DNA from: Streptomyces zhaozhouensis | GTDB taxonomy: Bacteria; Actinomycetota; Actinomycetes; Streptomycetales; Streptomycetaceae | NCBI RefSeq assembly: GCF_900230195.1 | Contig: NZ_OCNE01000014.1 | Span: 62,001-126,000, forward strand | Reading direction: 5' to 3' | DNA: 64,000 nucleotides | Shown here: piece after piece, positions 5,013 to 15,767 of the stretch | Layout: every line of letters begins with the position of its first letter | Numbering within the stretch: the stretch's first letter is position 1 | Notes under the pieces: generated by a model | The model's database searches: none | What the model saw: only the letters and a program-made list of their open reading frames with translations | Told to the model about the DNA's origin: nothing | Made by a program: the position numbers and the translations under genes

Positions 5013-5450
5013 TCAGGGGCGGCGCGGCGGGATCGCGACCAGCGGCCCGAGACGCTTGACCAACAGGGCCATCTCGTAGGCGACCTGACCGACCTCCGCC
5101 TCCGGGTCCGTCAGCACGGCCAGGGCGCTGCCCGATCCGGCCGCCGTCACCAGCAGGAACGCCTCGTCCAGCTCGACCAGCGTCTGCCGGGCCGTCCCGG
5201 TGTCGAAGTGCTGGCCGACGCCACGCGCCAGGCTGTGGAACCCGGAGGCGACGGCGGCCAGTTGCTCGCTGTCCTCCCGGCCCAGGGCGCTGGAGGCGCC
5301 GCGCGCCAGGCCGTCGGCGGCCAGCAGCAGCGCGTGGCGGATGCCGGGCACCCGTGCCACCAGTTCGTCCAGCAACGGGTCGAGGGACTCGGCCGCCGGC
5401 TGGCCCTTCCGCTCGGCGGGGCCGGGGGTCGTGGGCTCGGGTACGGTCAT
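5013..5450 (-). CDS. cvnB: roadblock/LC7 domain protein, conservon CvnB-like
   Basis: This small cytoplasmic roadblock-fold protein corresponds to the second gene of Streptomyces conservons, where it pairs with a membrane sensor kinase, a DUF742 protein and a small GTPase. The 145 residues show a short disordered head, then LDPLLDELVARVPGIRHALLLAADGLARGAS, a helix with EQLAAVASGFHSLARGVGQHF, and the second strand set TLVELDEAFLLVTAAGSGSALAVLTDPEAEVGQVAYEM (quoted here as one continuous roadblock half). The start has AGGAC upstream. It lies 88 bp downstream of the kinase on the same strand. The usual DUF742 and GTPase genes are absent: the next gene downstream (vanX) is on the other strand, so this is a two-gene conservon. 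Confidence 0.85.
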   Translation of the reverse strand: MTVPEPTTPGPAERKGQPAAESLDPLLDELVARVPGIRHALLLAADGLARGASSALGREDSEQLAAVASGFHSLARGVGQHFDTGTARQTLVELDEAFLLVTAAGSGSALAVLTDPEAEVGQVAYEMALLVKRLGPLVAIPPRRP

Positions 5451-5464
5451 GCGTCCTGTCCTTC

Positions 5465-5503
5465 GGTCTGACGTCTCTTCGGTCGGTCTGACGTCTCTTC
5501 GGT
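5465..5503. repeat. tandem 20-bp duplication between cvn genes
   Basis: A 19-bp word starting GGTCTGACGTCTCTTCGG occurs at 5465-5483 and again at 5485-5503 (period 20, one mismatch over the full unit). Each copy holds a GACGTC palindrome. It lies between the stop of the kinase and the start of the roadblock gene, so it could affect coupling or a local promoter. Confidence 0.7.
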
Positions 5504-5538
5504 TGCCGCGGGTCTCCGGGACGGCGTGCGACGGCCCC

Positions 5539-7941
5539 TCAGGGGGCGGCGGGCGGCGGCTCGTCCGCCCCCTCGGACTCGGTCTGCTCCCGGCCGCGCC
5601 GCCAGCCGCGTTGCAGGGCCGCCAGCCTGCTGCGCAGCTCCTCCGCGTCCACCTCGGGCGCGGCCTCCGGGTCGGGGTGGCCGCCCGGCTCGCCGGTGGC
5701 GCGCGCCGGGGCCTCGGGCGCGGGCGCCCTGCGGCGCACGCGGCGCGGCAGTCCGGCGCCCGTCACCCCCTCGCGCGCCGGGCGCTCGGGCTCGGACGCG
5801 CCGGCGCCCGCGCCGCCCCGTTCGGGTGGCGGGGGCACCGGCCGGCCGTGGTCGGCGACGAGCACGGGCGCCGCGTGGCGCCGGCCGCCCGCCGCCGGGC
5901 GGGCGGCGGGGTGTTCCGCGGCGTGCTCCTCGGTGCCGGCCGGGTGTCCGACGTCGCCCTCGGCGTCGACCGCGGCCTCCAACTCGACCGGCCCGTCCAC
6001 CGGTCCGTCCAGCAGCGCGGGCCGCCCCGGCGCCGAGGCGAGGCGCTCCCGCGTCGGCACTCCCTCGGGGGCCTCGGACAGCAGTTCACCGGGGATCAGG
6101 GTGACGGCGGTGGTGCCGCCGTAGGGCGATTCGCGCAGCGCGACCTTCACGTGGTGCCGCTCGGCCAGCCTGGCCACCACGAACAGCCCGATCCTGTCGG
6201 TGTCGGAGAGCTGGAACTCGGTGATCTCCGACAGCCGCCGGTTGGCCTCGCGCAGCGCCTCCGGCGTCATGCCCAGGCCCCGGTCGTGGATCTCCAGGGT
6301 CACGCCGTGCGGAACGCGCTCGCCCGAGACCTGGACGGCGGTGTGCGGGGGCGAGAACACCGTGGCGTTCTCCAGGAGTTCGGCCATCAACTGCACCAGG
6401 TCGGCGACGGCGCCGCCGGCGACCACCAGCGGGGGGAGGCGGCGGATCTCGACGCGTTCGAAGTCCTCGATCTCGTCGACCGCGGCCCGCACCAGCTCGC
6501 TCAGGTGCTCCGGCTTGCGCCACTGCCGGGCCGGGGCCGCGCCGGAGAGGATCACCAGGCCCTCCGCGTTCCGCCGCATCCGGGTGCTGAGGTGGTCCAG
6601 GCGGACCAGGTCCACCCGGGCCTCGCTGTCCTGGCTGCGCTGCTCCATCGTCTCCAGCAGCTGGAGCTGACGGTGCAGCAGCACCTGGTTGCGGCGGGCC
6701 AGGTTGACGAAGACCTCGGAGACGCCGCGCCGGGTGTAGGAACGTTCGACGGCCGCCGAAGTGGCCTCGCGTTGCAGGGTGTTGAGCGAGCGTCCGATGC
6801 GGCCTATCTCGTCGTCGCCGTACTCCAGGCGGGGCGCCTCGGTCTCCATGTCGACGTGCTCACCCGCCTCCAGGCGGCGGGTGACGCCGGGCAGCCGCAC
6901 CTCGGCGGCGTCCGTCGCCTCCCGGGCCAGATCCGTCAGGTCGCGGGTGAGGGAACGCGCCCCGCGCACCGCGATCCACGCCGCGCCCGCCACCAGCAGC
7001 AGGCCGAAGCCGCCGGCCAGCACGGCGCGGACGACCAGCGGGGTGTGGGAGGAGTCGAGCCGGTCGGCCAGCCGGCCGTCGGCCTCGGCCACCAGCGCGC
7101 CGGTGCCCTCCAGCACGTCGAAGGTGCTCTGCTCCCAGTGGCCCGGCAGCGGGGTGCCGAGGTCGCCCGCCAACTGCTGCTCGGCCTCGGCGAGGATGCG
7201 GGCCGTGCCGCTGTCCCAGAAGCCGTCGTGGTTCTGCCGGTCGTCCAGCGGGAGGTCGGGCACGGACTGGGCGTAGACCGCCTCGCGGGCGGCTATCAGG
7301 TCGGTGAGCGCGCGGCGCTCGGTCTCGCTGCTGCGGCCGGTGCCGAGCACGCCGGCGACCAGCGCGTCCTCCTGGGAGACGTACTCGCGGGCCTGGCGCA
7401 GTCCGGCGACCGCGCTCGCGTGGCGCTGGCCCGAGGCGTTCTCCGCCGGGGGCAGCGCGGCGCGGAAGCGCAGCGCCGCGGCGGTCAGGTCGCTGTAGGC
7501 GTCCAACGCGCCGGAGAGCGGGATGGTGTTGCTGTCGGTCTGGCCGCGCAGCCGGTCCAGCTCGCCCAACGTCCGCCGCAGCGTGGCGAGTCGGCTCTCC
7601 GCCGCGCCCGTCAGATGGCCCTCGGCGGCGTCGGTCGCCCGCCACAGGCGGCGCAGCGTGACCCCGGTCTCGGCCCGGGACGCGTCCAACGCGTCCAGGG
7701 CGTCGGCCCGCCGGGGGTCGGCGAGATAGACGACGGCGTCGCGCCGCTCCCGCTGGAGGGCGGCGATCAACTCGTCCGCGGGGGCGGCGAGCCGGTCGGC
7801 GGAGGAGGACGAGTCGGTGGCGTCGAGCGCCGCCGAGACGGTGAGCGCGGCGGTGAACGCCCAGACCAGCAGCAGGGAAAGGAGCGGCACCAACACCAGC
7901 GTCCAGACCCTGCGTGGGACCGTCTTGCCGCGAACGCGCAT
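5539..7941 (-). CDS. cvnA: NIT-domain sensor histidine kinase, conservon CvnA-like
   Basis: This is a membrane sensor kinase of the nitrate/nitrite-sensing-domain type that heads Streptomyces conservons. In about 800 residues I see TM1 (residues 11-36), an extracytoplasmic NIT-like helical domain (about 50-290), TM2 (about 300-322), a HAMP-like linker, an atypical dimerisation region with VNLARRNQVLLHRQLQLLE and RLDHLSTRMRRNAE (about 405-450), and an HATPase_c domain with ENATVFSPP and RGLGMTPEALREANRR. The last 170 residues are a disordered Pro/Arg/Glu tail. The start at 7941 is chosen because GGGGAGGGT immediately precedes it; a GTG at 7989 is also open. Only a roadblock partner follows, without the DUF742 or GTPase members. 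Confidence 0.85.
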   Translation of the reverse strand: MRVRGKTVPRRVWTLVLVPLLSLLLVWAFTAALTVSAALDATDSSSSADRLAAPADELIAALQRERRDAVVYLADPRRADALDALDASRAETGVTLRRLWRATDAAEGHLTGAAESRLATLRRTLGELDRLRGQTDSNTIPLSGALDAYSDLTAAALRFRAALPPAENASGQRHASAVAGLRQAREYVSQEDALVAGVLGTGRSSETERRALTDLIAAREAVYAQSVPDLPLDDRQNHDGFWDSGTARILAEAEQQLAGDLGTPLPGHWEQSTFDVLEGTGALVAEADGRLADRLDSSHTPLVVRAVLAGGFGLLLVAGAAWIAVRGARSLTRDLTDLAREATDAAEVRLPGVTRRLEAGEHVDMETEAPRLEYGDDEIGRIGRSLNTLQREATSAAVERSYTRRGVSEVFVNLARRNQVLLHRQLQLLETMEQRSQDSEARVDLVRLDHLSTRMRRNAEGLVILSGAAPARQWRKPEHLSELVRAAVDEIEDFERVEIRRLPPLVVAGGAVADLVQLMAELLENATVFSPPHTAVQVSGERVPHGVTLEIHDRGLGMTPEALREANRRLSEITEFQLSDTDRIGLFVVARLAERHHVKVALRESPYGGTTAVTLIPGELLSEAPEGVPTRERLASAPGRPALLDGPVDGPVELEAAVDAEGDVGHPAGTEEHAAEHPAARPAAGGRRHAAPVLVADHGRPVPPPPERGGAGAGASEPERPAREGVTGAGLPRRVRRRAPAPEAPARATGEPGGHPDPEAAPEVDAEELRSRLAALQRGWRRGREQTESEGADEPPPAAP

Positions 7942-8181
7942 ACCCTCCCCTTGCTGTGCCCGGCCGCTCCGCACGCGATGGGTGTCCACGAGTCAACGTG
8001 TCGACAGCGCGAGCCTACTACCGGTCAGGCCGGCGGACCCGCTCGGTGCGCACTCCGGTCATCATGGGGGTGACCCGGTGGGCGCCTCATCCTGGTCCGT
8101 GACCGGCGGGGGCGCAAGGCGTTCTACCATGGTCACCCGAGGACATATCCGCGCATCTCACCGTGCAGGGGGCCCAGCGGC

Positions 8182-8592
8182 GTGTATGCGAGACCCCGAC
8201 TTCCCGATCCCGTGCGCACCGCCGCCGTGCGCGCGGTGATCATCATCGCCCTGACGCTCTGCCAGCTCGTCGTGATGCTGCTGGCGTTGCTCGCCGGCTC
8301 CTGGCTGGTGCTGCCGATGGCCATATCGACGTTGCTCAGCGCCGTGGTGGCGACCTGGTCCGTGCTGGACATCTGGGTGACCTCGCAGTCCTGGCGGCAG
8401 CGCAACGGCGTGGTCTCCGTGCCGAGCAGCGTCGCGCGGGCCAACGCCAGGGCCCGGCGCGCCGAGCGCCGGGCCGCGAGGAAGGCGGCGCGCCGTCAGG
8501 GCAGGGGCGCCGCGCCGGCGTCCGGGGCGGGCGCCGAGGGGGCGGAGGGCGCCGAGGGGGCCGGCGACTGGGACGTGTTGGGCCTGCGGTAG
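8182..8592 (+). CDS. small two-helix membrane protein
   Basis: This 136-residue protein from a GTG start (GGGGG about 10 nt upstream) has two predicted membrane helices: VIIIALTLCQLVVMLLALLA, then a second span through PMAISTLLSAVVATWSVLDIW. A basic cytoplasmic segment rich in Arg/Ala follows (ANARARRAERRAARKAARR), then a low-complexity Gly/Ala/Glu tail with GAEGAEGAEGAG. I recognise no enzyme motif. It looks like the small membrane proteins commonly conserved in Streptomyces. Its last 97 bp overlap, antisense, the 3' end of the SMC-like gene at 8496-13130, and both proteins are low-complexity exactly in that overlap. Which stop evolved by extension cannot be told from one sequence. Confidence 0.7.
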   Translation: MYARPRLPDPVRTAAVRAVIIIALTLCQLVVMLLALLAGSWLVLPMAISTLLSAVVATWSVLDIWVTSQSWRQRNGVVSVPSSVARANARARRAERRAARKAARRQGRGAAPASGAGAEGAEGAEGAGDWDVLGLR

Positions 8593-11500
8593 ACGCGGGT
8601 GGCGGTGACCTCGCCGTGCACCGGCTCGGCCTCCTCGTCGGTACGCGGCAGCCCGGGGCGCAGATGCTCCTCGACGCTGATGTACTTCAGCCCGGCGCGC
8701 AGGTCCGCGTCGTTGCGCAACCGGATCACCAGGGGGAACTCGGCCAGCGCCGTGGTGTCGAACAGGCCCGTGGTGTAGAGGAGTTGCACGCCGAGGGCGT
8801 CGGCGACCGCGCGTTGCAGCTCCAGCAGATAGGTGGCGTTGGCGCGACCGATGGGGTTGTCCAGGAAGAGCGTGCCGGCGTGCCGGTGGCCGTCGCGGCC
8901 CCGGTCGTTGCCGCGCAGCGCGGCCATCGTGCAGTAGAGGGCGATGGCGGCGGTCAGCAACTGGCCGCCGGAGAAGACGTCTCCCATCTGGCCGACGGGG
9001 ACCCGCTCGGCGCGCAGCACCGCGTCCGGCTTGAGGATCTCCACGCGCACACCGGCCGGGCGGATCGCCGCGTGCGTGCCGCGCAGCAGCAGGGAGACGC
9101 CGTCCCGGCGCAGGTCCGTGTTCTTCCGGACGGCGGCGCGGGTCACCTCGTCGACGACCTCGCCCAGGCGCTCGGTGAGCGTCGCCTGGTCGGGCTCGTC
9201 GAAGCGGATGCGCAGGAACTCCTGCCCCGACCACTCCCCCAGCCCCTCGGGCAGCCGGGAGAGCCGCTGCGCGGAACGGAGGGTGGCCAGCGCCGACTCG
9301 ACGAGGCCGCGCAGCCGGTCGACGATGCCGTCCCTGTTCCGCTCCAGCTGGGTCAACTCGTCGCCGAGCACCCGCAGCCGGGGGGCGAACGCCTCGGCCC
9401 AGGCCGCCGCGTGGGTGGGCAGGGCGGCGGCGGGCAGCTCCCTGATCTGGGTGCGGGCCGGGGTGCGGACCTGCTCGTAGCGGCTGGCGTTGGCGTGCCG
9501 CACCAGCTGGTCGCAGGCGTCCCGCACGGCGGACTCGGCGGCGGCCAGCCCGGAGCCCGCGGCGCGGAGCGCGCGGCGGGCGTCGCCGACGGCCGCCCTG
9601 GCCTCCTCGATGGCGCCGGGGTAGGGCTCGGGCGCGGCCGGCGCCTGGTCCGACTCCTCGCCGGGGTCGCGGAGTTGATCGCCGAGCTGGGCGGCGCTCT
9701 CGGCGAAGCCCTCGGCGGCGCGCACCGCGCGGGCGTGCTGCTCGGCCAGGGCCCGGTGGGCGGTCTCGGCCTCGGCAAGCTCCTCCTCGCGCGCGGCCAG
9801 CTCCGCCTCGGCGGCGCGCAGCAGCTCGGCCGCGCGCGGCGCGTCCTCGGGGACGCGGTCCTCGGGCAGCTCGATGTGGGCGGCGCCCTCGGCGGGCGCC
9901 AGCCGCTCGGCCTCGCCGCGCAGCCGGCCCAGCCGCTCGCTGGCGGCGGCAGAACGCCCCTCCAGCGCCTGGACCTGCGCCTCGGCGCGCTCGGCCGCGG
10001 CGCGGCGGGAGGGGCCGTCGGCGCCGTCCGGGCCGTCCAGGAGGCGGGCGGCGCGGGTGCGGACCTTGTTGCTCAGGCGGTCCAGCGCGGCGCGGGCCGC
10101 CGACTCGTCGCCCTCGGCGCGGGCCTGCTCGGCGCGCAGGTCGGCGCCGACACCGACCTTCTCGTAGAGCCGGGAGGCCGAACGGTACGCCTCGCGCAGC
10201 GCGGGCAGCGAGGTCTCCGCGTCGGGCGAGGCCCCCTCGACCGCGTCGTCGGGGGCGCCGGAGACCTCGGCGCGCTCGGCGCGCAGCGCGTGCGCGGTGC
10301 GGCGGGCGTCGTCGGCGGCGCGCTGCGCGGCGCGGCGGTCCTCGTCCGCGGCCTGGGCGACGGTCAGCAGCTCGGCGGCGCGGGCCTCGGCGTCGGCGGC
10401 CTCGGCCGCCAGCTCCCGCGTCCGCGACCGCCACCGGCCGCGCTCCCGCAGCCGGGAGGCGAGGCCGACCAGCGCGTCGGCGGCGCGGCCGGCGCGCTGC
10501 GCCGCCTCCTGCCGGGCGTCCCTGGCCTCGGCGGCCTCGGTCGCGGCGGCGGCCGCCTCGTCGGCCTCGGCGACCAGCGCCGTCAGCCGGGCCTCGGCCT
10601 CGACCGCCCGCGCGGCGGTGCGTTCGGCCGCGGCGTCCAGCTCGCCGAGCCGGCCGGCCGGGCAGCCCGCGCGCCAGGAGGCGAGCCGGGCGGCCAGCGC
10701 CCGGTCGCCGGTGACACGGGCGGCCAGCGTCCTGATGTCCGTGTCGCGCGCGCCCGCGCGGGCGCGCAGCGCCTGGCGTTCGTCGTCGGCGGCGCGCTCG
10801 TCGTGCATCGCGGGGTTGGGCGGGACCAGGAAGATGCCGCTGTCCGCGCCGCCGGGCGGCGGGGTCGGGGCGAGCAGCGCGGCGGCGGTGCCGACGGCGA
10901 CGGCGGAACGGGGCAGCAGCGCGGCCTCGTCCAGCACCTCGCGGGCCCGGGCGTGGCTGTCCACGTCGGTGATGACGACGCCGTCGACCAGCTCGGGCCT
11001 GGCGGCCAGCACCGCCGCGTGATCGGCCGGGTCGACGGCCTGCGCGAGATAGCGCCAGCCGGGCAGGGCGGGAACGCCGTGCTCGCCGAGGAACTCGACG
11101 GTGGCCAGCACGTCGGGCCCCGGCGGCAGCAGGCCGCCGTCGCCGAGCGCGGCGAGGATGCGGGCGTCGTCGGCGGCCTCGGTGCGCAGCGAGAACAGGC
11201 GGCGCTCGGTCGTCTCCAGGGAGGCATCGAGCAGCCCGGCCAAAGTCTCCGCGTGCGTGTCGAGGTCGGCGACGGTCAACTCCTCGGCGACGCCAAGCAG
11301 CTCGGCGAGGCGGGGCTCGGCGGCCAGCGAGCCGGCGGTGGCGCGCTCGGCGGCCAGCGCGGCCTCGGCCGCCTGGGCGGCGTCGGCGGCGCGGGCGGCG
11401 GCCAGCTCGGCCGAGGCGCGCTCGCCGGCCAGCTCGCCGGCGCGCTCGGCGGCGCCGGCGGCGGCGATCCGCGCGGTCTCGAACGCGGCGACCGCCGCGC

Positions 11501-13130
11501 GGGAGGCGTCGGCCGCCGCGAGCGCGGCGGCGGCCGGGTCGGCGCCGGGGCCGTCCTCCAGCCAGCCGGCGCGAACGGCCTCCGCCATCTCCCGCTCGGC
11601 CTCCTCGAAGCGCTGCCGCAGATGGTCGGCCTCGCTGCGGGCGCGCTGCGCCTCGGTGGCGGCGGCGGTGGCGTCGCGGTGCGCGGTCCCCGCCTGGGCG
11701 ACGAGGGCCGCGGAGCGCTCCTCGTGCTCGGCGGCGGTGGCCTCCCCGCGCTCGGCCGCCGCGTGCAGGGCGCGCACCAGCGCGGCGGCGGCCTTCGACC
11801 TGGCGGCCAGCGCGGGCGCCGCGTCCCGCTCGGCCTCCTGGATGGCGGCGGCGACCCGCGCGGCGCGGTCGGCGGCGGCGCGGTGCTGGAGCACCGTCTC
11901 GGCGGCGGCCCAGGCGGCCTGCCGGGTGCGGGCCTCGGTCAGCTCGCGGCGCTGGGCCGTGGCCGCCTGCTCGGCGGCGGCCAGCGCCAACGACGCGTGG
12001 CGGAAGGCGAGTTCCGCGGTGATGCGGGCGGCCCTGGCGCGGGCCTCCTCGGCGCCGGCGACGGCCTCGGCGCCGTTATCCGCGCTCTCGGCCAGCTCGG
12101 CGGCCAGCCCCCGCTCGCGCTCGGCCCTGGCCGCCAGCCGCCGGGTCAGCCCGCGCGCCCGGTGCTCGGCGGCCGAGTGGACGGAACGGGCCGACTCGCG
12201 CTCGCCGGCCGCCTCCGTCACCCGGCCGAGCAACTCGACGGAGCCGGCCGTGAAGTCGCGCTCGGCGGTCAGCTCGGCGCGCCGGCCGAGCTTGTCGGCG
12301 AAGCCGTGCACCAGGTCGGCGAGGCCGTCGGTGTCCCTGGGGTCGGTGACGGCGCGCAGCAGCAGGTCGGTGAAGTCCACGTCGTTCTTCACCGCGAAGA
12401 GGCCGGCCGCCTCGCCCTCGTCCGCGTTCATCTCCCGCTGGTAGCGGAAGAGCTCGGGGTCGAGGCCGAGCCGGCCCAGGTGCTCGATCCAGCGCTCGTG
12501 GACCTCCTCCCAGACGACGTCGAGGTTCGGGTAGGCGCGGCCGGTCTCGGTGAGGACGTCGCGGAAGCCCTTCATGGTGCGGCGCCTGCCGCGCGCCCCC
12601 GAGCTGCCGTCGCCGGACTCGGGGCGGCGCAGCGCGGTGGACTCGGCGACGGGCAGCGAGTCCAGGCTCATCCCCGGGCCCGGCCGGAACGAGTACCACG
12701 CCTCGGCGAAACGGCGCGGGTCGTTCGACACCTGGCGGCCGCGCCACTCGCTGACCTTGCCGACGACGACGCTCTCGCCGGTGCGGGTGTGCTGCCACTC
12801 CAGGGCCACGTGGCCGCAGTCGTCGGCCAGCAGGAACTTGCGCAGCACGCCCGAGCTGGCGCCGCCCAGGGTGTTGCGGTGGCCGGGGAGCATCACGGAG
12901 AAGATCAGCTTGAGCAGCACCGACTTGCCGCCGCCGTTCTCCAGGAAGAGCACCCCGGCGGGGGCCGGGCGCAGCGGCGGGCCGGTGGGCTCGTCCTCGA
13001 AGAAGTCCGCCTGCGCGGGGGCGGGTTCGGGGACGGGCGCGCCGACGCCTCGCAGGTCGAGCACGGTGTCGGCGTAGCGGGCGCCGGCTGGGCCGATGGA
13101 GTAGAGGCGGACCCGGGACAGCTCGTACAT
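8496..13130 (-). CDS. MukB/MksB/JetC-like SMC ATPase with Asp-Asn Walker B
   Basis: This is a 1544-residue SMC-type ATPase, third gene of a kleisin-KITE-SMC operon. The N-terminal head has Walker A FLENGGGKS (64-70) after a family-specific opening MYELSRVRLYSIGP. Long Ala/Glu/Arg coiled coils flank a globular middle segment (roughly 640-790, with PGWRYLAQAVDP and IFLVPPNPAMHDERAADDE) in the hinge position. The C-terminal head has the signature DVFSGGQLLTAAIALY (Q at 1390) and a Walker B reading GTLFLDNPIGRA, with D1424 followed by N1425 where most ABC/SMC ATPases have Glu. I checked this on the DNA as GAC AAC. The tail is a Pro/Ser/Ala repeat overlapping the convergent gene by 97 bp. The likely role is DNA loop extrusion or plasmid restriction, by family only. 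Stand-alone ATPase activity is uncertain given the Asn. Confidence 0.8.
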   Translation of the reverse strand: MYELSRVRLYSIGPAGARYADTVLDLRGVGAPVPEPAPAQADFFEDEPTGPPLRPAPAGVLFLENGGGKSVLLKLIFSVMLPGHRNTLGGASSGVLRKFLLADDCGHVALEWQHTRTGESVVVGKVSEWRGRQVSNDPRRFAEAWYSFRPGPGMSLDSLPVAESTALRRPESGDGSSGARGRRRTMKGFRDVLTETGRAYPNLDVVWEEVHERWIEHLGRLGLDPELFRYQREMNADEGEAAGLFAVKNDVDFTDLLLRAVTDPRDTDGLADLVHGFADKLGRRAELTAERDFTAGSVELLGRVTEAAGERESARSVHSAAEHRARGLTRRLAARAERERGLAAELAESADNGAEAVAGAEEARARAARITAELAFRHASLALAAAEQAATAQRRELTEARTRQAAWAAAETVLQHRAAADRAARVAAAIQEAERDAAPALAARSKAAAALVRALHAAAERGEATAAEHEERSAALVAQAGTAHRDATAAATEAQRARSEADHLRQRFEEAEREMAEAVRAGWLEDGPGADPAAAALAAADASRAAVAAFETARIAAAGAAERAGELAGERASAELAAARAADAAQAAEAALAAERATAGSLAAEPRLAELLGVAEELTVADLDTHAETLAGLLDASLETTERRLFSLRTEAADDARILAALGDGGLLPPGPDVLATVEFLGEHGVPALPGWRYLAQAVDPADHAAVLAARPELVDGVVITDVDSHARAREVLDEAALLPRSAVAVGTAAALLAPTPPPGGADSGIFLVPPNPAMHDERAADDERQALRARAGARDTDIRTLAARVTGDRALAARLASWRAGCPAGRLGELDAAAERTAARAVEAEARLTALVAEADEAAAAATEAAEARDARQEAAQRAGRAADALVGLASRLRERGRWRSRTRELAAEAADAEARAAELLTVAQAADEDRRAAQRAADDARRTAHALRAERAEVSGAPDDAVEGASPDAETSLPALREAYRSASRLYEKVGVGADLRAEQARAEGDESAARAALDRLSNKVRTRAARLLDGPDGADGPSRRAAAERAEAQVQALEGRSAAASERLGRLRGEAERLAPAEGAAHIELPEDRVPEDAPRAAELLRAAEAELAAREEELAEAETAHRALAEQHARAVRAAEGFAESAAQLGDQLRDPGEESDQAPAAPEPYPGAIEEARAAVGDARRALRAAGSGLAAAESAVRDACDQLVRHANASRYEQVRTPARTQIRELPAAALPTHAAAWAEAFAPRLRVLGDELTQLERNRDGIVDRLRGLVESALATLRSAQRLSRLPEGLGEWSGQEFLRIRFDEPDQATLTERLGEVVDEVTRAAVRKNTDLRRDGVSLLLRGTHAAIRPAGVRVEILKPDAVLRAERVPVGQMGDVFSGGQLLTAAIALYCTMAALRGNDRGRDGHRHAGTLFLDNPIGRANATYLLELQRAVADALGVQLLYTTGLFDTTALAEFPLVIRLRNDADLRAGLKYISVEEHLRPGLPRTDEEAEPVHGEVTATRVYRRPNTSQSPAPSAPSAPSAPAPDAGAAPLP

Positions 13131-13184: not shown

Positions 13185-14060
13185 TCAGCGGTGGAACGGC
13201 AGTCCGGCGCCGTCGGCCAGATCGGTGGCGTCCGGGTCACCGGGCAGCAGCGTGCCGGTGCCGTCGCTGACGGGGACCAGACCCAGCTCGGTCAGCTCCG
13301 TCAGCGCGGCGGTGGTCGCCAGCTCGCGGACCTGGAGCTGGTAGCGGGGGGTGGTGCGGTAGGTGCCGCCCTGCTCGTCGCCGACGCGGTGCAGGAAGCC
13401 GGAGTCGGCGAGGAAGGCGACGGCCTTGCCGACGATGCCGGTCGTCGAACCGGCCAGCCGGCGGGCGTCCTTGGTGGCGCCGGTGGCGCTACGCCGGGCG
13501 TAGACCCGCCAGGCCGCCTCAAGCCCCGGCTCCTCGCTGGCGGGGTCCGTGTTCTCCCCGCGCTCGGCGGCGCGCTCGGCCAGCCGCTCGCAGGCGTGGC
13601 GGACGAAGGACTCCACGCCGTTGACCGTGATCCGGCCCAGGTAGTCGTCGTCGGCGAGGTCGGCCGGGCGGGGGAACGCCAGGGCGGCGACGGCGAGATG
13701 GGCCAGGCCGTGCAGGAAGCGGTCGGTGGTCTCGGCGGTGGTGCGGCGGGCGTACTCGCCCATGCGGACGGCGAAGACCGAGTCCTCGGCGGCGGCCACG
13801 GCCATCCCGGCGCGCGGGGAGACCTCCAGGACGACCAGTCCGAGGCCGCCGGCGACCGCGTCGGCGACGCGGGCGAAGGGCGGCTCCTCCTGGTAACGGC
13901 GGAGCAGGGCCGCGTAGTCGGCGTCCCTGGCCGGCGGCAGCTTGGGCTGGAGGCCGAAGGAGACCAGCCGGGCCGCGTCGGCGGCGTCGGCCGGGGTGAG
14001 CGGCGCCGCGGCCGGGGGCCCCTGGGGCGTGGGCGCTGTGGTGGCGGGCGGGATGGTCAA
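13185..14060 (-). CDS. MukE/MksE/JetB-like KITE subunit (predicted)
   Basis: This 291-residue protein is the middle gene of the SMC operon. It starts at TTG within TTGA, so start and upstream stop overlap by four bases, and GGAGGAG lies just upstream. That arrangement argues for translational coupling despite the rare start codon. After a Pro/Ala-rich head, the body (about 20-280) is helical, with LVSFGLQPKLPPARDADYAALLRRY near the start and winged-helix-like pieces such as GIVGKAVAFLADSGFLHRV and YRTTPRYQLQVREL. Length, position and winged-helix character match MukE/MksE/JetB proteins. The identity rests mainly on gene order, so moderate confidence is appropriate. It ends 54 bp before the SMC gene. 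Confidence 0.6.
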   Translation of the reverse strand: MTIPPATTAPTPQGPPAAAPLTPADAADAARLVSFGLQPKLPPARDADYAALLRRYQEEPPFARVADAVAGGLGLVVLEVSPRAGMAVAAAEDSVFAVRMGEYARRTTAETTDRFLHGLAHLAVAALAFPRPADLADDDYLGRITVNGVESFVRHACERLAERAAERGENTDPASEEPGLEAAWRVYARRSATGATKDARRLAGSTTGIVGKAVAFLADSGFLHRVGDEQGGTYRTTPRYQLQVRELATTAALTELTELGLVPVSDGTGTLLPGDPDATDLADGAGLPFHR

Positions 14061-15643
14061 CGGGTCTCCTCCGTGCGGGCGGCGGCCATGCCCGCCGCGT
14101 CCAGCAGGGCGGTGCCGACGACGAGGTCGGCGCCGCCGAAGTCAGGGTCGGTCAGCGGGGTGCCGTCGTCCACGGCGAACAACAGCCGCCGCTCGCCCTG
14201 CCGGTAGGCCGTGCCGACGGGCGGACTGGCCGCGTGCGCCGCGAGCAGCGCGATCAGGTGCGGCAGCTCGGGGTCGCGGGCGCGGGCGTCGGCGAGCAGC
14301 CCGGAGAGCCGGCGGGGGGCGTCGGGCGGCAGCCGCAGCAGCTCCGTCGCCGACTCCAACTGGGCCTCGCTGAACCGGCTGTCGTCCGGGGTCGCCACCA
14401 GGTCCGGCTCGGGCAGCTCGGCGCCCAGGTGCTCGCGGGGCGCGGGCGGGGTCAGCAACTGCTCGACGAGGTCGGTCAGCCGGACGGCGCCCGGCGGGCG
14501 GGGGCCGGTGCCCCGGGCGAACCAGGCGTCCGTCACCCGCGTCGCCCCGGCGACGGGCGTCGGCAGCAGCGGGGCGAGCAGTTGGCCGTACAGGTCGACG
14601 CCGGCGCGGGCGGCCGGGGCGGCGAACGCCTGGCGGTCCTGCTCGGCACGGAAGAGCGGGCCGGCCTCCAGCAGCCGGGACTGGAGCTGGGTGTGGCGCC
14701 GGATGCAGTCGCGGACGATGTCGACCAACTCGGCGGCGCGCAGCTTGTGTTCGGAGTCGACGGCCTCGTCCCTGGCGTGCCGGATGTGGGTGAGGATCGC
14801 GTTCTCGTGGCGGTAGCGGTCGGCGATGTGGTCCAGCGCCTCGTCGACCATGTCGGGCACGGTGTGCAGCCAGTCGACGGCGCGCACGTCCCGCCGGGTG
14901 GAGTCCAGCGTGCGGCGCAGCGTCTCCGCGTACTGCACGGTGCGGTAACGGGCCTGCTCGGCGGCGAGTTGCGCGTCGGCGAGGCGGCCCCTGTTGACCA
15001 GCACCTCCAGCTTGACCTCCGCGGCGATCTGGGCGCTGGTGACGTCGGTGTCGAGGGCGCCGACCAGGACGTTGACCGCCTCGTCCGTGGTCCGCAGGTA
15101 GACCGCGCCGCCGGGGCCCTGGACCTCCTCGATCAGCTTGAAGTCGTAGTCCCTGCGGGTGTATTCGCCGTCCGCGCCGAAGGTGCCGTAGACGGCGCGG
15201 AAGCCGCGGTCGACGCTGCCGACGTTGATCAGGTTGTCCACGACCCAGCGGGCGACGCGGCGGTGCTCGGCGACCGGGCGGCCCGGCGCCTGGGCCGCGA
15301 TCCTCGGCAGCAGCCTGGCGATGACCTGCTCCTGCTCGGCGCCGGTGTCGAAGTCCATCGCGAGGGTGACCAGGTCGATGGCGGCGAGCGCGACCTCGGC
15401 CATCGCGTAACGGGCGTACTCCCCGGCCAGGTTGGCCTTGCGGGTGTCCAGGTCGTGCAGCGGCGCGGTGCAGGCCAGGGCGCGCAGCCGGCGCGCCAGG
15501 CCCTCGTCGGCGGCGGGGCCGGGCGCGGGGCGGGGGGCCGGCGACGCGGACGCGGGCACCGGGGGCGGTGTCTGCGCGGCTGGTCCCGGCTGCGCGGGGG
15601 CCGGGGGTGGCGTGGTGCCGCCGCTGGGTGAGGGTACGGTCAC
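14057..15643 (-). CDS. MukF/MksF/JetA-like kleisin subunit (predicted)
   Basis: This is the first gene of the SMC operon, about 528 residues. A Pro/Ala-rich disordered head (about 45 residues) precedes a helical protein with LHDLDTRKANLAGEYARYAMAEVALAAIDLV cut across the first helices, a winged-helix-like part with YTRRDYDFKLIEEV, a long helical middle (RYRHENAILTHIRHARDEAVDSEHKLR region) and a C-terminal part ending in a small strand domain. This plan resembles MukF/MksF/JetA. I chose the GTG at 15643 because TAGGGT lies exactly seven bases upstream, the geometry of a leaderless actinobacterial transcript; the frame is open further upstream to 15757. Its 3' end overlaps the next gene's TTG start. 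No JetD-like (DUF2220 or topoisomerase VI-like) gene is adjacent. Confidence 0.6.
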   Translation of the reverse strand: MTVPSPSGGTTPPPAPAQPGPAAQTPPPVPASASPAPRPAPGPAADEGLARRLRALACTAPLHDLDTRKANLAGEYARYAMAEVALAAIDLVTLAMDFDTGAEQEQVIARLLPRIAAQAPGRPVAEHRRVARWVVDNLINVGSVDRGFRAVYGTFGADGEYTRRDYDFKLIEEVQGPGGAVYLRTTDEAVNVLVGALDTDVTSAQIAAEVKLEVLVNRGRLADAQLAAEQARYRTVQYAETLRRTLDSTRRDVRAVDWLHTVPDMVDEALDHIADRYRHENAILTHIRHARDEAVDSEHKLRAAELVDIVRDCIRRHTQLQSRLLEAGPLFRAEQDRQAFAAPAARAGVDLYGQLLAPLLPTPVAGATRVTDAWFARGTGPRPPGAVRLTDLVEQLLTPPAPREHLGAELPEPDLVATPDDSRFSEAQLESATELLRLPPDAPRRLSGLLADARARDPELPHLIALLAAHAASPPVGTAYRQGERRLLFAVDDGTPLTDPDFGGADLVVGTALLDAAGMAAARTEETR

Positions 15644-15767
15644 GAGGCACACCCTAGGCGGTGCCACCGACAACGCTCGATTCGGCACGGATGTGCGGCT
15701 TGTCCCGGGCGTGTCCGCGCGGTTCCTGGGTGCGGGCCAACGGCCGTGTGGGGGCACGATTCTCGTG

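What the first reader, a model, noticed from the sequence alone, without database searches (positions are those of the whole stretch)
8850..8870. SMC Walker B reads Asp-Asn instead of Asp-Glu
The motif GTLFLDNPIGRA gives D1424-N1425, confirmed on the DNA (GAC AAC). The Glu normally activates water in ABC/SMC ATPases, and Glu-to-Gln blocks hydrolysis. Walker A and signature are intact. The subunit may bind but hydrolyse slowly, or use another residue. I cannot say whether the whole family shares this.
Basis: partly seen in the sequence, partly recalled or inferred. Interest (0 to 1): 0.7.

Follow-up and report, generated by a model that had tools for sequence, protein, structure and literature searches.

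The report
Asn replaces catalytic Glu in JetC
A DNA-handling motor protein of Streptomyces has asparagine where related ATP-driven motors have the glutamate that helps split ATP; every member of its family that I could read shares this, and in Streptomyces the complex has also lost its DNA-cutting partner.

Summary
In detail: the minus-strand codons at 8861-8859 and 8858-8856 are GAC AAC, giving D1424-N1425 in a 1544-aa SMC protein (8496-13130). It is not a quirk of one protein. The protein is a JetC of the Wadjet type III kind (PADLOC JetC3, 1402 bits), in a jetA-jetB-jetC operon. With the site masked in the search profile, all 144 distinct JetC3 C-lobes read Asn there, including alpha-, beta- and gamma-proteobacterial ones in operons that carry the nuclease JetD. 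Type I and II JetC and SbcC heads read Glu, apart from one type II Asp. The aspartate of the D-loop is also replaced in JetC3, and no switch histidine is seen. So Asn marks the whole type III branch and does not follow from loss of function in this strain.

The second result: the window's operon belongs to a JetD-less core clade. JetC3 is in 100 of 101 Streptomyces genomes. JetD is absent from all 80 core loci and the window, and a second family has the same arrangement. The ATPase head of this clade is its most conserved part.

ATP hydrolysis must therefore be slow or use another residue; E238 is the best candidate. Natural Glu-to-Gln in Lamassu LmuB is a published parallel. I found no report of the type III Asn.

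The parts
8496..13130 (-). jetC: SMC subunit of Wadjet type III kind (JetC3), 1544 aa
   Evidence: PADLOC PDLC00588 JetC3, E=0, 1402 bits over residues 1-1521; no Pfam or NCBIfam family at a meaningful score
8856..8861 (-). codons GAC AAC = D1424 N1425, the site of the finding
   Evidence: Asn in 144 of 144 distinct JetC3 C-lobes with a letter
8838..8876 (-). Walker B and D-loop region GTLFLDNPIGRAN (1419-1431); the D-loop Asp place is N1431
   Evidence: D1424 falls at the end of a predicted strand, model residues 164-169; residue 1431 is N 122, S 21, T 1 of 144
8961..8975 (-). ABC signature FSGGQ (1386-1390)
   Evidence: S1387 and G1389 in 144 of 144, G1388 in 142 of 144
12921..12944 (-). Walker A LENGGGKS (63-70)
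   Evidence: K69 in 134 of 134 distinct N-lobes with a letter; 27 of 161 lack the stretch
12417..12440 (-). putative Q-loop QREMNADE: Q231 to invariant E238, candidate substitute catalytic acid
   Evidence: E238 in 161 of 161 distinct N-lobes with that column masked; assignment as Q-loop is inference from motif order
8757..8759 (-). D1458, three residues after the switch-loop place (TTG..D), second candidate
   Evidence: 142 of 144
13185..14060 (-). jetB: KITE (MukE/JetB-like) subunit, 291 aa, TTG start
   Evidence: 31-52% identity to JetB of five Actinomycetota/Polaromonas plasmid operons, 19% to two others; AF2 model (mean pLDDT 68.7) whose best PDB matches are MukE and Wadjet JetABC chains, best E 1.8e-3, TM 0.34 on the query
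14057..15757 (-). jetA: kleisin subunit JetA3, 566-aa ORF; the true start may lie inside it
   Evidence: PADLOC PDLC00567 JetA3, 613 bits over residues 81-564
8182..8592 (+). convergent small ORF (136 aa, membrane-like by eye) overlapping the 3' end of jetC
   Evidence: homologue in 62 of 80 core loci

Best explanation
This is the SMC ATPase (JetC) of a Wadjet type III-derived JetABC complex. Shown here: Asn at the catalytic-Glu position is fixed in every type III JetC examined, with or without the nuclease, so it is most simply an ancestral trait of that branch. Shown here: the window's operon lies in a core, JetD-less clade under strong conservation of the ATPase head. Inferred: JetC binds two ATPs between its heads as other SMC proteins do, and it still cycles, slowly, because the missing Glu is replaced in function. 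The most likely stand-in is the invariant E238 beside the putative Q-loop glutamine, with D1458 beside the switch loop as second choice. In JetD-bearing operons this cycle would drive DNA sensing and cutting. In Streptomyces the same cycle without JetD would serve DNA bridging, looping or chromosome handling, as MukBEF does without MksG.
For: Family: JetC3 and JetA3 models. Site: 144 of 144 distinct C-lobes Asn with the site masked; N1425 among 19 invariant columns of 15 JetC3s at 17-70% identity to the window; all nine plasmid records found read DNP. Contrast: type II 9 of 10 Glu, one Asp; the four loci with a type I/MksB-like motif (L147, L148, L149, L152) Glu; SbcC-like 17 of 17 Glu; solved E. 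coli JetC Glu. Head fold: C-lobe model (mean pLDDT 81.8) matches MukB, JetC, SMC and Rad50 heads. Continued use: in 81 core sequences K69, S70, Q231, E238, S1387, G1388, G1389, D1424, N1425 and D1458 are invariant; mean column conservation is 0.97 in residues 1-110 and 1241-1480 against 0.84-0.89 in residues 291-1240. JetD loss: none in 80 core loci or the window, none in the own genome. E238 in 161 of 161 N-lobes.
Against: In type I, MksB E1042Q is hydrolysis-deficient (PMC10123090, passage), so loss of the Glu could simply stop hydrolysis. Asn at the D-loop place and no switch His make a hydrolysis-competent site less obvious. No type III head is among the solved structures by sequence, so the place of E238 is not known. 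The alignment of type III to type II heads is weak statistically (probability 22% for the N-lobe and 1.6% for the C-lobe) and rests on motif order plus fold. The 42-row tree has long branches.
Confidence: 0.5

Rival explanations
1. JetC3 is a natural Glu-to-Asn trap: it binds ATP, engages its heads and hydrolyses hardly at all. The complex acts as an ATP-gated DNA clamp or sensor, as suggested for Lamassu LmuB, and switching comes from nucleotide exchange or from DNA and partner binding.
For: LmuB generally carries a Glu-to-Gln change at this place, and Vibrio Lamassu was suggested to have low or no ATP hydrolysis (PMC10586767, passage). MksB E1042Q is hydrolysis-deficient. The D-loop Asp is also N, S or T in 144 of 144. 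Strict Asn, never Glu, Asp or Gln, in 144 of 144 suggests that the neutral residue itself is selected.
Against: Type I Wadjet cleavage needs a functioning JetC ATPase (PMC10586767, passage), and type III operons keep JetD in the same layout. A clamp alone would not measure plasmid size by extrusion.
Confidence: 0.38
2. The Streptomyces copy is a decaying leftover: the nuclease is gone, the ATPase is dead, and the Asn reflects relaxed selection.
For: JetD is missing in all 80 core loci and in the window.
Against: Asn is equally fixed in JetD-bearing operons. The head is the most conserved part of the core proteins. JetC3 is found in 100 of 101 Streptomyces genomes. All 67 core loci longer than 20 kb keep jetA, jetB and jetC.
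Confidence: 0.04
3. The Asn is converted after translation, for example by deamidation to Asp, giving a D-D Walker B like that of the RecF-like protein of the same genome.
For: A D-D Walker B occurs in the RecF-like L250 and in one type II JetC, L135.
Against: Asn before Pro is not a typical deamidation site (general knowledge), and no gene encodes Asp there directly in 144 of 144.
Confidence: 0.03

Closest known systems
Wadjet type III (JetA3-JetB3-JetC3-JetD3; PADLOC JetC3 PDLC00588, JetD3 PDLC00594)
   Same: JetC3 and JetA3 models match strongly; same gene order A-B-C; same DNP motif and similar length
   Different: No jetD beside the operon or, at model sensitivity, anywhere in the own genome
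Wadjet type I / MksBEFG and type II (solved JetC, 8as8, 8dk2, 9qe0)
   Same: SMC-kleisin-KITE layout; head C-lobe fold; no classic switch His in the type I and most type II loci read
   Different: Glu (once Asp in type II) instead of Asn, and the type II loci read keep an Asp at the D-loop place
MukBEF (JetD-less Wadjet-group condensin)
   Same: SMC-kleisin-KITE complex without the MksG/JetD nuclease; JetB and JetC models match MukE and MukB; absence of JetD in several Wadjet-group members is in print (PMC7617805, passages)
   Different: The window's JetC belongs to the type III branch with Asn; MukB is recalled to carry Asp-Glu (not read here)
Lamassu LmuB
   Same: Natural loss of the catalytic Glu in an SMC-like defence ATPase (Glu to Gln; PMC10586767, passage)
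   Different: Different family, Rad50-like and short-armed; Gln not Asn; different partners

Membership tests
Wadjet type III system (JetABCD3) | JetC3 SMC subunit | tested here: met
   PDLC00588, 1402 bits
Wadjet type III system (JetABCD3) | JetA3 kleisin subunit | tested here: met
   PDLC00567, 613 bits
Wadjet type III system (JetABCD3) | JetB KITE subunit between jetA and jetC | tested here: met
   homologous by sequence to JetB of JetD-bearing operons; fold match to MukE/JetB is moderate; no PADLOC JetB hit
Wadjet type III system (JetABCD3) | JetD nuclease in the operon | tested here: not met
   No JetD in the window or in 80 core loci; none in G000 by PF09983 or PDLC00594. So: a type III-derived JetABC module, not a whole Wadjet system
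Canonical ABC/SMC ATPase | Walker A Lys, signature SGG, Walker B Asp | tested here: met
Canonical ABC/SMC ATPase | catalytic Glu after the Walker B Asp | tested here: not met
   Asn in 144 of 144 distinct JetC3 C-lobes with a letter
Canonical ABC/SMC ATPase | D-loop Asp and switch His | tested here: not met
   residue 1431 N/S/T in 144 of 144; no His at the switch place in 25 of 25 aligned heads. Type I and most type II Wadjet loci read also lack the His
Canonical ABC/SMC ATPase | ATP hydrolysis | not testable with these tools
   needs purified protein
MukBEF/MksBEF condensin-like complex | SMC, kleisin and KITE without nuclease | tested here: met
MukBEF/MksBEF condensin-like complex | role in chromosome organisation | not testable with these tools
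   no phenotype data
Lamassu | LmuB with LmuA/LmuC partners | not tested
   the neighbours are JetA3 and JetB; no Lamassu model was among the hits

The most novel reading that the evidence does not exclude
Streptomyces and a second family of the same class carry, as a core chromosomal trait, a nuclease-free SMC complex that descends from an anti-plasmid system and works with a catalytic-Glu-free ATPase: either an ATP-locked clamp or a motor with a new catalytic acid (E238). It would be a second, undescribed condensin-like machine beside SMC-ScpAB on linear chromosomes.
Probability: 0.3. Interest if true: 0.8.

Novelty: new variant of a known kind. Interest (0 to 1): 0.52.

Why it matters
Glu-to-Gln at this position is the standard laboratory trap for SMC and ABC ATPases. 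A whole Wadjet type that is naturally Asn, including forms that keep the nuclease, either uses another catalytic acid or does its work with little hydrolysis; both bear on how SMC motors use ATP. The JetD-less core operon in Streptomyces is a ready genetic test case with a plain prediction: deletion affects chromosomes or plasmids.

Tried and rejected
Idea that Asn came with loss of JetD: rejected, because JetD-bearing type III operons have it too. Idea that the frame or sequence is at fault: rejected. Idea of a decaying operon: disfavoured.

Led nowhere: Pfam and NCBIfam name none of the three proteins. PDB by sequence finds only coiled coils or chance matches for JetC3. Viral contigs gave no JetC3 with an N-lobe profile; phages gave none. 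Profile-profile comparison of type III and type II lobes was weak. A single origin of the JetD-less clade is neither shown nor rejected: the Streptomycetaceae and f85 groups join with support 63/40 and in 66% of 200 bootstrap trees. Doron 2018 and Deep 2022 are not held, so the statement that type III protects against plasmids is recalled. No paper holds JetC, asparagine and Wadjet together; none holds any of six wordings of 'lacking JetD'. Rows dropped: the 42-row tree left out L123, L128, L210-L213, L216 and L217 (broken, cut, fragmentary or duplicate of a genome already in) and three near-copies, L202, L205 and L207. In the type I/II/SbcC comparison no Walker B was caught in L150 and L151. 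In the own-genome ABC check 29 of the 30 best ABC_tran loci gave Glu and L221 was a misread by the pattern. In one search the switch-loop pattern gave TTG in 121 of 144 and caught other places in about 15, so I rely on the 25 rows.

Full report
What is there. The minus strand of the window holds a three-gene operon: jetA (14057-15757), jetB (13185-14060) and jetC (8496-13130). JetC matches the PADLOC model JetC3 at 1402 bits over nearly its whole length, and JetA matches JetA3 at 613 bits. JetB has no model hit. It is homologous to the gene in the same place of type III operons (31-52% identity to five of seven plasmid copies, 19% to the two most distant), and its predicted structure (mean pLDDT 68.7) best matches MukE and JetB chains, with moderate scores. 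Pfam and NCBIfam name none of the three. The window's closest JetC is that of Streptomyces sedi (96% identity), so the host is a Streptomyces or very near one.

The site. D1424-N1425 is coded GAC AAC on the minus strand at 8861-8856. D1424 ends a predicted strand of the C-terminal head lobe (model residues 164-169, mean pLDDT 81.8). That lobe matches MukB, JetC, SMC and Rad50 heads (best Z 8.2 for MukB, aligned 208, rmsd 5.0; Foldseek best E 1.1e-3), so the register with the SMC Walker B is sound although sequence comparison alone is weak.

How general it is. I gathered JetC3 loci from genome contigs (80 best, all Streptomycetaceae by title except one named only Actinobacteria), from Streptomyces, class and phylum samples (with regions in 16 and 51) and from plasmids (which end on the same nine records). 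A C-lobe profile with column 1425 masked found 145 distinct sequences; 144 have a letter there and all are Asn. They form 31 clusters at 90%, 11 at 50% and 7 at 40% identity. They include Polaromonas (beta), E. coli and Salmonella (gamma), Microvirga (alpha), Rhodococcus, Embleya and Streptomyces plasmid copies. Ten downstream genes of such loci were scanned and all ten match JetD3, so Asn is not tied to loss of the nuclease. In contrast, type II JetC loci read Glu in 9 of 10 and Asp in one; four type I/MksB-like loci read Glu, as does the solved E. coli JetC; 17 of 17 SbcC-like loci read Glu. The own genome's SMC and RecN-like proteins read Glu and its RecF-like protein Asp (the names RecN and RecF are from recall of the motifs).

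Other changes of the site. The D-loop Asp place (1431) is N in 122, S in 21 and T in 1 of 144. No switch His is seen in 25 of 25 aligned heads, but type I and most type II loci read here lack it too. E238, seven residues after Q231 in what I take for the Q-loop, is Glu in 161 of 161 distinct N-lobes with that column masked. D1458, beside the switch loop, is kept in 142 of 144. These two are the best candidates for a substitute acid; that is inference.

JetD is missing. The own genome has no JetD by PF09983 or by JetD3 PDLC00594. A profile of 15 JetD3 proteins finds none in the window or the 80 core loci, of which 69 have at least 3 kb beyond jetC and 6.5 kb before it. Of 101 Streptomyces genomes 100 have JetC3 (the miss is 78% complete), while 16 have a JetD3 hit at E <= 0.001. 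Nine of those are strong, and all nine lie beside an additional JetC3. Seven are weak; two of them lie near type II JetC hits, and the other five were not followed. In a class sample of 296 genomes, 45 have JetC3: 28 of the window's genus, 16 of a second, unnamed family (f85), and one weak hit. The f85 operons have JetA and JetB about 56-63% identical to the window's and no JetD in the stretches held. Of 20 genomes asked (17 of f85, 3 of the window's genus), eight had a JetD3 hit: G287, G606 and G615 strong, G536 partial but clear, and four weak. The JetD of G287, G615 and G536 lies on the contig of an additional JetC3; that of G606 was not followed.

Descent and constraint. In a tree of 42 JetC3 proteins the Streptomycetaceae core copies form one group (16 rows, support 100), the f85 copies another (7 rows, 100), both within JetD-bearing rows (many long branches). 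Whether JetD was lost once or twice is open (63/40). In 81 core sequences the head is the most conserved part: mean 0.97 for residues 1-110 and 1241-1480, 0.92 for 111-290, against 0.84-0.89 for residues 291-1240, with all motif residues checked invariant. All 67 core loci longer than 20 kb hold jetA, jetB and jetC. The operon is not decaying.

How it works. Most likely (0.5) JetC3 still hydrolyses ATP, slowly, with another residue in the place of the Glu. The chief rival (0.38) is an ATP-gated clamp with hardly any hydrolysis. For the first: JetD-bearing type III operons keep the layout of a system whose type I member needs a working ATPase to cut DNA (PMC10586767, passages read), and E238 is invariant. 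For the second: MksB E1042Q of type I is hydrolysis-deficient (PMC10123090, passages), and LmuB of Lamassu generally has a natural Glu-to-Gln change and may hydrolyse little or not at all. I recall, but could not read, that type III protects B. subtilis from plasmids (Doron 2018, not held). In Streptomyces, without JetD, the complex should act on DNA structure rather than cut it; MukBEF and several other Wadjet-group members also lack the nuclease (PMC7617805, passages).

What is known. DefenseFinder work found Wadjet in 42% of actinobacterial genomes and enriched at Streptomyces chromosome ends (PMC10482375, passages); JetD does not occur in that text, and the passages I read do not treat the core JetABC. 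A 2026 paper on SMC in Streptomyces has no mention of Wadjet (PMC13121528, passages). Searches for JetC with asparagine and Wadjet and for six wordings of 'lacking JetD' gave no paper; DUF3584 gave five papers, none on Wadjet by title (listing). The library lacks most subscription papers and preprints, so this is not proof of absence.

Verdict. It is a new variant of a known kind. The JetD-less core operon is at least as interesting as the Asn.

Noticed in passing
8182-8592 (+): A small ORF (136 aa, membrane-like by eye) converges on jetC and overlaps its 3' end by 97 bases; a homologue is found in 62 of 80 core loci.
   Followed up: partly
5013-7989 (-): A roadblock-like gene and a sensor-kinase-like gene (conservon type, named from recall) lie downstream of jetC; homologues found in 50 and 58 of 80 core loci.
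   Followed up: partly
L132 4372-8798: A Salmonella plasmid type III jetC is split into two overlapping frames (978 and 506 aa), and no downstream gene on the same strand was listed in the jetD place.
   Followed up: no
L135 (type II JetC): One type II JetC reads Asp-Asp at Walker B and has LSQGEQ instead of SGGE at the signature.
   Followed up: no
L199-L208 (unnamed family f85): A second family of the class carries a JetD-less jetABC; its JetC matches are broken near model position 45, as if it had extra residues there.
   Followed up: partly
L117 / G089:C1, both chromosome ends: One Streptomyces chromosome carries two type III jetC copies of identical score in inverse orientation about 11 kb from each end, as expected for terminal inverted repeats.
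   Followed up: no
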